From: Elusimicrobiota bacterium | GTDB lineage: Bacteria; Elusimicrobiota; Elusimicrobia; UBA1565; UBA9628 | Direction of reading: 5' to 3' | Length of the DNA stretch: 64,000 bases | Assembly (NCBI GenBank): GCA_016194705.1 | Contig: JACQAZ010000001.1 | Span: forward strand, 23,324-87,323 | Part shown: positions 61,426 through 62,930 of the stretch, piece by piece | Numbering within the stretch: position 1 is the first letter of the stretch | Layout: each line of letters opens with the position of its first letter | Program-made: the position numbers and the translations under genes | Notes under the pieces: model-generated | Told to the model about the DNA's origin: nothing | What the model saw: the letters and a program-made list of their open reading frames with translations, nothing else | Databases searched by the model: none

Positions 61426-61442
61426 TATAATAGTAGTTATGC
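61426..61442 (+). promoter_or_regulatory. -10-like TATAAT adjacent to a GTTATGC core site at the left edge of the cassette region
   Basis: GTCAGTATAATAGTAGTTATGC just before the first cassette ORF. Confidence 0.45.
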
Positions 61443-61449
61443 TACCCCA

Positions 61450-62136
61450 ATGAAAATGAGAGTTACAATTATCTTCTGTCTCGGAGGATTTCTTTCTCCT
61501 GCTGCGGCCCAAGAGTCAGCGCAAGAACGGCTCGCAAAATTTAAGGCGTCTCAAGGACAGATCGCACAACTCCAAGAGAAAGTCGAAAAGGCCCCTGATG
61601 ATCAAAAAGCGTATCGGGCTCTTCTGGAGGCGGGTCTCGATCAGTACGAATTGATTTATGCTCGCGAACACTATCCAGCTGATATTCGCGAGAACATTTT
61701 GAAATTAAAGGTCGTGATGGAAGACATGTACACTCTTCAGGAAAGCATCAATGAATCGGGCATGCCGGTTGGCGTCACCGTACCGGACCTATTGCAGCGG
61801 CTTAAGGCCCAAAAGGTTCGGTATGCTCGCCGAAGATCTGTCCCCCTGATCGATCCTTGGGGCACCCCATATCGCTTCTTCATTTTCCCTGAGAACGGTC
61901 AATACAAGATCGTTTCAGCAGGAAGCGACAAGAAATTTGACCCAGAAAATCTTCGGATCACAGAAGATGAGTTGAGGCAAGCACCTGAGAAACGGTCTTC
62001 CAAAATGAGTGACGATATTGTGTTCATCGACGGGCGCAACTTTACAAAGATCTACGACTACCCAAAGAAAGCGCAAACATTCCTGTACACGCGTTGCAGG
62101 CCAGCGGATGAGGTGCGCAAAGTGCGGTGCTGGTAG
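61450..62136 (+). CDS. Secreted protein with GspG/pseudopilin-like C-terminal motif (cassette 1)
   Basis: Signal peptide MKMRVTIIFCLGGFLSPAAAQ; LIDPWGTPYRFFIFPENGQYKIVSAGSDKKFDPEN. Confidence 0.75.
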   Translation: MKMRVTIIFCLGGFLSPAAAQESAQERLAKFKASQGQIAQLQEKVEKAPDDQKAYRALLEAGLDQYELIYAREHYPADIRENILKLKVVMEDMYTLQESINESGMPVGVTVPDLLQRLKAQKVRYARRRSVPLIDPWGTPYRFFIFPENGQYKIVSAGSDKKFDPENLRITEDELRQAPEKRSSKMSDDIVFIDGRNFTKIYDYPKKAQTFLYTRCRPADEVRKVRCW

Positions 62137-62137
62137 C

Positions 62138-62212
62138 ATAACTAACCGCTTCTGCCGACGGCGGCTTTGCAGAGGATCGCCTGATAGCCGTCGCGGCAGA
62201 GCGGAGCGTTAT
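62138..62212 (+). other. Integron attC-type recombination site 1
   Basis: ATAAC-TAA-CCGCT-T-CTGCCG-ACGGC ... GTCGCGGCAG-AGCGG-AGC-GTTAT: R/L boxes, unpaired spacer and extrahelical T. Confidence 0.85.
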
Positions 62213-62277
62213 GGCTCGGTTCTGGCGAGGTAGCAATCCGGGGCGTGGATGGACCGACGGCATGAGGATGAGCGCAC

Positions 62278-62523
62278 ATGATTCGCGCTGAAGGCAAGAA
62301 CGTTATCCTTTGGTTCGTTCTCGTCCTGGTGGCTTACATTATTTGGAGTGCTACTCTCGGCGGCTCATTTGGATGGTTCATTGGGCATTATTCCTACTCG
62401 ACCCCGATGCCCACCTGGACGGCGATGCGAGGTACTGTTCATACTCCATCACCGGAACAAGCTGCGCAAATGAATCTTGAGTTCTCCCGGCATATGAAAG
62501 AGATCAACTGGCTAATTTGGTGA
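62278..62523 (+). CDS. Small hypothetical membrane protein (cassette 2, ORF a)
   Basis: 81 aa, one or more TM segments. Confidence 0.6.
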   Translation: MIRAEGKNVILWFVLVLVAYIIWSATLGGSFGWFIGHYSYSTPMPTWTAMRGTVHTPSPEQAAQMNLEFSRHMKEINWLIW

Positions 62524-62529
62524 CCGCTA

Positions 62530-62799
62530 ATGAATGCGACAGCTTGGGTGGTCACAGGCGCTTTTCTTGGACTCGCATCCATACGTCGTTACAATTTCAT
62601 TCTGTTTGTTTTGTTTTACATCTCCTCGCTCCTTGGAATCATGCATCAATTAGCTGCTTCCGGAAATCTCGTGATTGAGGGAGCGACATTTCTTGCTTCG
62701 GCTGTCGCCTTTTGGTTTTCGAACGAATTGACCTCCAAGATTCGGGCCGGAATACTGACGGCAAAACGGCATGAGAGCACAATACTACGCCATAACTAA
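62530..62799 (+). CDS. Small hypothetical membrane protein (cassette 2, ORF b)
   Basis: 89 aa, 2-3 TM segments; stop codon lies within the following attC site. Confidence 0.6.
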   Translation: MNATAWVVTGAFLGLASIRRYNFILFVLFYISSLLGIMHQLAASGNLVIEGATFLASAVAFWFSNELTSKIRAGILTAKRHESTILRHN

Positions 62800-62863
62800 C
62801 CGCTTCTGGCGACCGCGGCTGTTAAGGAATTCCAGTAGCCGCGGCGCCAGAGCGGAACGTTAT
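62792..62863 (+). other. Integron attC-type recombination site 2
   Basis: ATAAC-TAA-CCGCT-T-CTGGCG-A-CCGCGGCT ... AGCCGCGG-CGCCAG-AGCGG-AAC-GTTAT; arms complementary except spacer and two extrahelical bases. Confidence 0.9.
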
Positions 62864-62930
62864 GCGTGGTACGCAGCCTCGCGCAGGTCCTAGATCGCGT
62901 CACCCCCTTGATTTAAGGACAAATCTCGTG

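What the first reader, a model, noticed from the sequence alone, without database searches (positions are those of the whole stretch)
61426..62867. Integrase-less integron cassette array with two near-ideal attC sites
Seen directly: two 72-75 bp sites in the same orientation (62138-62212, 62792-62863). Arms pair as ATAAC/[3-nt unpaired spacer]/CCGCT/extrahelical T/CTGSCG/.../GTTAT. Between the sites the inner stem covaries (CTGCCG...CGGCAG versus CTGGCG...CGCCAG). The second site has exactly two extrahelical bases (T and A) on one arm, which is classical attC architecture. A GTTATGC with a preceding TATAAT at 61426-61442 could be an attI/Pc-like left border. The enclosed ORFs are of unknown function and locally lower in GC than the window. 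No tyrosine recombinase ORF is present.
Basis: partly seen in the sequence, partly recalled or inferred. Interest (0 to 1): 0.85.

Follow-up and report, generated by a model that had tools for sequence, protein, structure and literature searches.

The report
Scattered integron docking sites without integrase
Two mobile gene cassettes sit behind the groEL gene of an uncultured Elusimicrobiota bacterium at a complete-looking integron docking site (attI plus promoter) with no integrase gene beside it, and the same genome carries about eleven more such docking sites elsewhere, whereas textbook integrons have one, next to the integrase.

Summary
Both sites (62137-62213, 62791-62864) are real attC sites: a covariance model built only from other genomes' attCs scores 57 bits each (E about 2e-16). 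That border is an attI-like module (repeat motif, TTGAAA-17-TACACT promoter, conserved core); the core is the only model hit in 64 kb. No integron integrase passes cutoff anywhere in the genome. The genome (Elusimicrobiota draft) holds 12 attI cores and about 27 attC sites on many contigs. Near-identical attI copies (up to 97%) carry unrelated first cassettes joined at G^TT. A congener has an attI behind groEL, typA and a third shared locus, with different cassettes, plus one intact intI elsewhere. A single-contig relative has one intI and two attI-headed arrays far from it. So this is not merely a decayed fragment; I read it as one platform of a decentralised integron, probably served in trans by one IntI. 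Trans action and the way attI modules spread are inferred. The intI of this genome is lost or unassembled.

The parts
59448..61076 (+). groEL, upstream neighbour; a terminator follows at 61108-61139
   Evidence: Pfam Cpn60_TCP1 E 1e-70; terminator-like hairpin; congener G001 is 88% identical over 58978-61165
61189..61200 (+). left motif of the attI module, TAGGCCGACCAG, identical to the repeat motif of intI-linked attI in relatives
   Evidence: same 12-mer beside intI in G001 and G022
61239..61267 (+). probable cassette promoter Pc, TTGAAA-17-TACACT
   Evidence: consensus scan; TACACT/TACAAT in the other attI modules
61410..61441 (+). attI core ...TAAGCTGGTCAGTATAATAGTAG^TTATG; crossover between 61436 and 61437
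   Evidence: only hit of model R2 in the window, 22.5 bits, E 9e-6, window left out of the model
61437..62208 (+). cassette 1, 772 bp
   Evidence: start GTTATGCTACC is the reverse complement of GGTAGCATAAC at its own attC
61450..62136 (+). cassette 1 ORF, 228 aa, likely signal peptide plus short GspG-like pseudopilin stretch
   Evidence: Pfam T2SSG E 5e-5, residues 124-163; 24 metagenomic homologues without a family name
62137..62213 (+). attC 1
   Evidence: R1 57.3 bits, E 2.4e-16; DNA fold
62209..62859 (+). cassette 2, 651 bp
   Evidence: start GTTATGGC complements GCCATAAC of its own attC
62278..62523 (+). cassette 2 ORF a, 81 aa, hydrophobic, probably a membrane protein
   Evidence: ORF list; no Pfam or NCBIfam match
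62530..62799 (+). cassette 2 ORF b, 89 aa, hydrophobic, probably a membrane protein
   Evidence: ORF list; no Pfam or NCBIfam match
62791..62864 (+). attC 2, last site of the array
   Evidence: R1 57.0 bits, E 2.9e-16; DNA fold

Best explanation
An integron cassette array with its own attI-like site and promoter but no integrase gene, and one of about a dozen such platforms scattered over one Elusimicrobiota chromosome. IntI made elsewhere (one intact gene in the congener) would recombine folded attC sites of free cassettes with any of these attIs at G^TT, so each platform takes up and expresses its own cassettes from its own Pc. Shown: attC identity, attI likeness, exact cassette joints, no adjacent intI, many platforms, different cassettes at orthologous platforms. 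Inferred: IntI acts in trans, Pc is active, and the platforms descend from intI-linked attIs. Not resolved: how the attI modules were copied, and whether this genome still has an intI (only a 26-aa relic is found).
For: attC: R1 hits; 108 double-sided pair changes against 38 in shuffles and at most 26 in slid controls over 28 attC hits of this genome. attI: R2 hit; 12 cores in this genome at E<0.002, 7 in G001, 3-4 in single-contig G063, none at E<0.3 in five family genomes without attC. Of 9 R2 hits in five genomes absent from its training set, 7 have a same-strand attC within 2 kb and none has intI in the 6-12 kb held. Joints: rc(R'') matches own cassette start, summed run 140 against a permutation maximum of 74 in 20000. 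attI copies 95-97% alike, first cassettes at background identity. Shared sites behind groEL, typA and at C17/C3 with different cassettes. G063: one intI, separate attI-headed arrays. In relatives the array lies at the 3' side of intI.
Against: No integron integrase over cutoff in this genome, so current activity is unproven. G063's intI has an in-frame TAG. R2 was trained partly on cores of this genome and recovers few intI-linked attIs of more distant genera, so common descent of all attIs is supported only for the closer ones. Four attI-like hits (two in G066, two in G063) have no attC that R1 detects, and G001 C57 shows only a degenerate one. Right flanks of the shared sites do not align, so no clean empty-site comparison was possible.
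Confidence: 0.78

Rival explanations
1. Decay: each platform is a former complete integron that lost intI in place, leaving attI and a frozen array. No trans service takes place now.
For: C46 keeps a 26-aa intI C-terminus (77% identical) between typA and attI; the C29 module keeps about 20 bp of the same left flank; intI loss leaving attC sites is known in Treponema phagedenis (PMC3607928); no intI found in G000.
Against: Most modules start at the hairpin that overlaps the intI stop codon in G001, with unrelated left flanks and no intI remnant. It would need about a dozen integrons, while G001 and G063 carry one intI each. Cassettes differ at orthologous sites in a sister species with an intact intI.
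Confidence: 0.25
2. Off-target insertion: cassettes entered ordinary chromosomal attG sites and no true attI is present.
For: attG insertion is an established outcome of IntI (PMC12901181), and dispersed CALINs are reported in Xanthomonas at seven loci (PMC12444791).
Against: The left sides are conserved modules with repeats, promoter and core, recognised by a model that left the window out.
Confidence: 0.04
3. Assembly or binning artefact: pieces of one broken integron placed on many contigs.
For: This genome is a draft in 49 contigs; several arrays lie near contig ends; attC repeats break assemblies (PMC9024848).
Against: The window joins array and groEL on one contig; G001 shows the same junction independently; G063 is one contig with the same arrangement.
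Confidence: 0.03
4. Chance hairpins, not attC sites.
For: None found.
Confidence: 0.01

Closest known systems
[quoted passage not shown]
   Same: At least two attC sites, no integrase nearby
   Different: [quoted passage not shown] here arrays start at a conserved attI with promoter, and about a dozen attIs share one genome
Treponema-type chromosomal integron with intI read toward attI, PMC3607928
   Same: intI-linked arrays of this Elusimicrobiota family have the same atypical layout, with attI and array at the 3' end of intI
   Different: One attI per integron is stated there; here attI modules also occur far from intI
Dispersed CALINs of Xanthomonas, PMC12444791
   Same: Cassette arrays at several conserved chromosomal loci away from intI
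   Different: In the passages I read no attI is reported at those loci; they are discussed with attG insertion
[quoted passage not shown]
   Same: attI sequence found away from its usual place beside intI
   Different: There attI replaces the attC of a cassette inside an array; here attI heads arrays at chromosomal sites

Membership tests
attC site / integron gene cassette | Folded site with R''/R' and L''/L' arms, spacer, extrahelical bases, 57-141 bp | tested here: met
   74-77 bp, two bulged bases each, folds and covariance model
attC site / integron gene cassette | Cassette start complements its own attC R'' (circular origin), crossover at G^TT | tested here: met
   8-11 nt in the window; 23 of 30 cassettes match own start better than next start
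attI site | Site beside intI | tested here: not met
   No integron integrase in the window or over cutoff in the genome; homologous sites lie beside intI in G001 and G022
attI site | Receives cassettes at G^TT, with integrase-binding repeats and a Pc nearby | tested here: inconclusive
   Sequence features and precise joints present; binding and activity not testable here
Complete integron | intI gene with attI and attC array | tested here: not met
CALIN | Two or more attC sites with no integrase nearby | tested here: met
   Two attC; none of 21 tyrosine recombinase hits lies in the window
attG insertion | Array enters a non-att chromosomal site | tested here: not met
   Left border is a conserved attI module

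The most novel reading that the evidence does not exclude
A decentralised integron: one integrase serves about a dozen chromosomal attI-promoter platforms, and the attI modules themselves (from the hairpin at the intI stop codon to G^TT) are units that get copied to new intergenic sites.
Probability: 0.4. Interest if true: 0.9.

Novelty: new variant of a known kind. Interest (0 to 1): 0.74.

Why it matters
Integrons are described as one attI beside one integrase gene, so only the first few cassettes of an array are near the promoter. A genome with a dozen attI-promoter platforms could express many first cassettes at once. It would also give CALINs, usually taken as debris, a second origin that current software cannot see because it does not search for attI outside class 1. 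The paired genomes make this directly testable.

Tried and rejected
A strict attC pattern in named genomes and 100 relatives: nothing outside this genome; the family's attCs differ in sequence, so a covariance model was needed. A first search for arrays on the 5' side of intI found none; arrays are at the 3' side. Exact matches of CCGCTTCTGNCG elsewhere in the genome show no attC structure. The best TIGR02249 hit in this genome (C38, pieces of 97 and 73 bits) lacks the middle stretch of the integron profile and is not IntI. A combined A+B attI alignment (A5) misaligned the right ends and was dropped. Rfam has no match in the window. I considered BrnTA and GFA as a third cassette; no attC follows before the contig ends, so they are left out. 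A literature search for multiple attI phrases returned only unrelated papers.

Full report
What was checked. The window is the end of an 87-kb contig (C12) of a 4.16-Mb draft genome, 95% complete, 49 contigs. GroEL matches named Elusimicrobiales best (74%), so the organism is an uncultured member of the Elusimicrobiota.

The attC sites. A structural scan returns exactly these two in the window and nothing comparable in 20 resampled windows. To avoid circularity I built a covariance model (R1) from ten attC sites of five other genomes of the family and order, eight of them from loci with an intI over the curated cutoff. It scores the two window sites 57.3 and 57.0 bits. In the whole genome it has 28 hits at E<=0.01 on 15 contigs, the window's two included. 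Across 28 aligned hits the stems covary far beyond shuffled and slid controls (the alignment was fitted to the structure, which favours it).

The cassette test. A cassette that entered as a circle must begin with bases complementary to the R'' box of its own attC, not of the next one. In the window cassette 1 begins GTTATGCTACC and its attC begins GGTAGCATAAC, an exact 11-nt reverse complement; cassette 2 begins GTTATGGC against GCCATAAC. Over 30 cassettes of this genome and a congener, own-start matches total 140 bases against a permutation maximum of 74 in 20000, and next-start matches are short. This fixes the left border at 61436/61437.

The attI. In relatives, 21 of 60 genomes have an integron integrase over the curated cutoff, and where sequence is available the array lies at its 3' side, the orientation known from Treponema (PMC3607928). 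Between intI and the first cassette of the nearest relatives lie a hairpin or repeat TAGGCCGACC, a promoter, further repeats and a core ending G^TT. The window has these parts in the same order: TAGGCCGACCAG at 61189, TTGAAA-17-TACACT at 61239-61267, core 61410-61441. A sequence model of the core (R2, 19 sites, window left out) has one hit in the window, this one, E 9e-6.

Many attIs. R2 finds 12 cores in this genome at E<0.002, 7 in congener G001, 3-4 in G063, and nothing convincing in five family genomes without attC. Nine of the 12 were in the training set; the window, C24 and C46 were not. Of nine hits in five further genomes never used for training, seven have a same-strand attC within 2 kb and none has intI in the sequence held; one of them lies at a contig start, so its left flank is unknown. 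G063 is a single contig: one intI (with one in-frame TAG) beside an array of some 35 attC sites, and two other attI-headed loci 0.5 and 0.9 Mb away, one with about ten attC sites and one with a single cassette. The pattern is therefore not an assembly effect.

In-place turnover. Modules at different sites are up to 95-97% identical left of G^TT and at background identity right of it. Behind groEL, G001 has a homologous leader and three other cassettes. At C17/C3 the left flank and attI align and the cassettes do not. Behind typA both genomes have an attI, of different type. In four other family genomes groEL is followed within about 150-420 bp by a gene that in G001 lies about 9.7 kb beyond the last attC. 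So the groEL platform appears to have been acquired in this genus and its cassettes have changed since.

How it probably works. IntI binds the attI repeats and a folded attC bottom strand and joins the cassette at G^TT; Pc reads into the first cassette. These steps are inferred from established attI1 and attC biochemistry (reviewed in PMC12901181), not shown here. IntI must come from elsewhere: G001 has one uninterrupted gene; in this genome only a 26-aa relic behind typA is found. The genome is 95% complete, so a missed intI remains possible.

Origin of the modules. C46 and C29 keep bits of intI or its flank, which points to descent from intI-linked attI. The others begin at the hairpin, which in G001 overlaps the intI stop codon, and have unrelated flanks. 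Whether this reflects repeated deletion or copying of a defined unit is open.

Cargo. Cassette 1 encodes a 228-aa protein with a short GspG-like stretch and 24 metagenomic homologues. Cassette 2 encodes two small hydrophobic proteins without family matches. Other cassettes of the two genomes encode a methyltransferase, a cyclase domain, HTH and HEAT-repeat proteins, and many unknowns.

Known or new. Integrase-less arrays are known (CALIN) and some are dispersed (PMC12444791). In the open-access library I searched, integrons are said to have one attI close to the integrase (PMC9024848, PMC3607928), and I found no report of many attI-headed arrays in one genome. Subscription journals were not covered. 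I therefore class it as a new variant of a known kind.

Noticed in passing
window 62948-63931: BrnT/BrnA toxin-antitoxin genes and a GFA-family gene follow the last attC; no attC follows before the contig ends. In G001 a pair of small genes that looks toxin-antitoxin-like (not scanned) also follows the last attC of the groEL array.
   Followed up: partly
L290 (G000:C46) 5734-6625: typA, then a 26-aa intI C-terminal relic, then an attI, a cassette and what looks like an insertion-sequence gene at the contig end.
   Followed up: yes
L145 (G000:C13) 5936-6185 and L136 10502-10751: An ORF-less first cassette in this genome matches the 3' part of the first groEL cassette of G001 (69% over 265 columns), so a cassette lineage occurs at different platforms with and without its gene.
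   Followed up: partly
L175 (G063:C1:2960333-2961256): The only intI of a single-contig relative has one in-frame TAG; inactivated gene or sequencing error.
   Followed up: no
intI contigs of G001, G030, G040, G042, G044: Contigs end some 130-330 nt past the 3' end of the intI match, as expected if cassette arrays there break the assembly.
   Followed up: no
L039 (G000:C38) 6000-14200: Four tyrosine recombinase genes in 8 kb, none over the IntI cutoff.
   Followed up: no
L149 (G000:C48) 4767-5340: A site with the module's left hairpin and an attC but no recognisable attI core; possibly a deleted platform.
   Followed up: no
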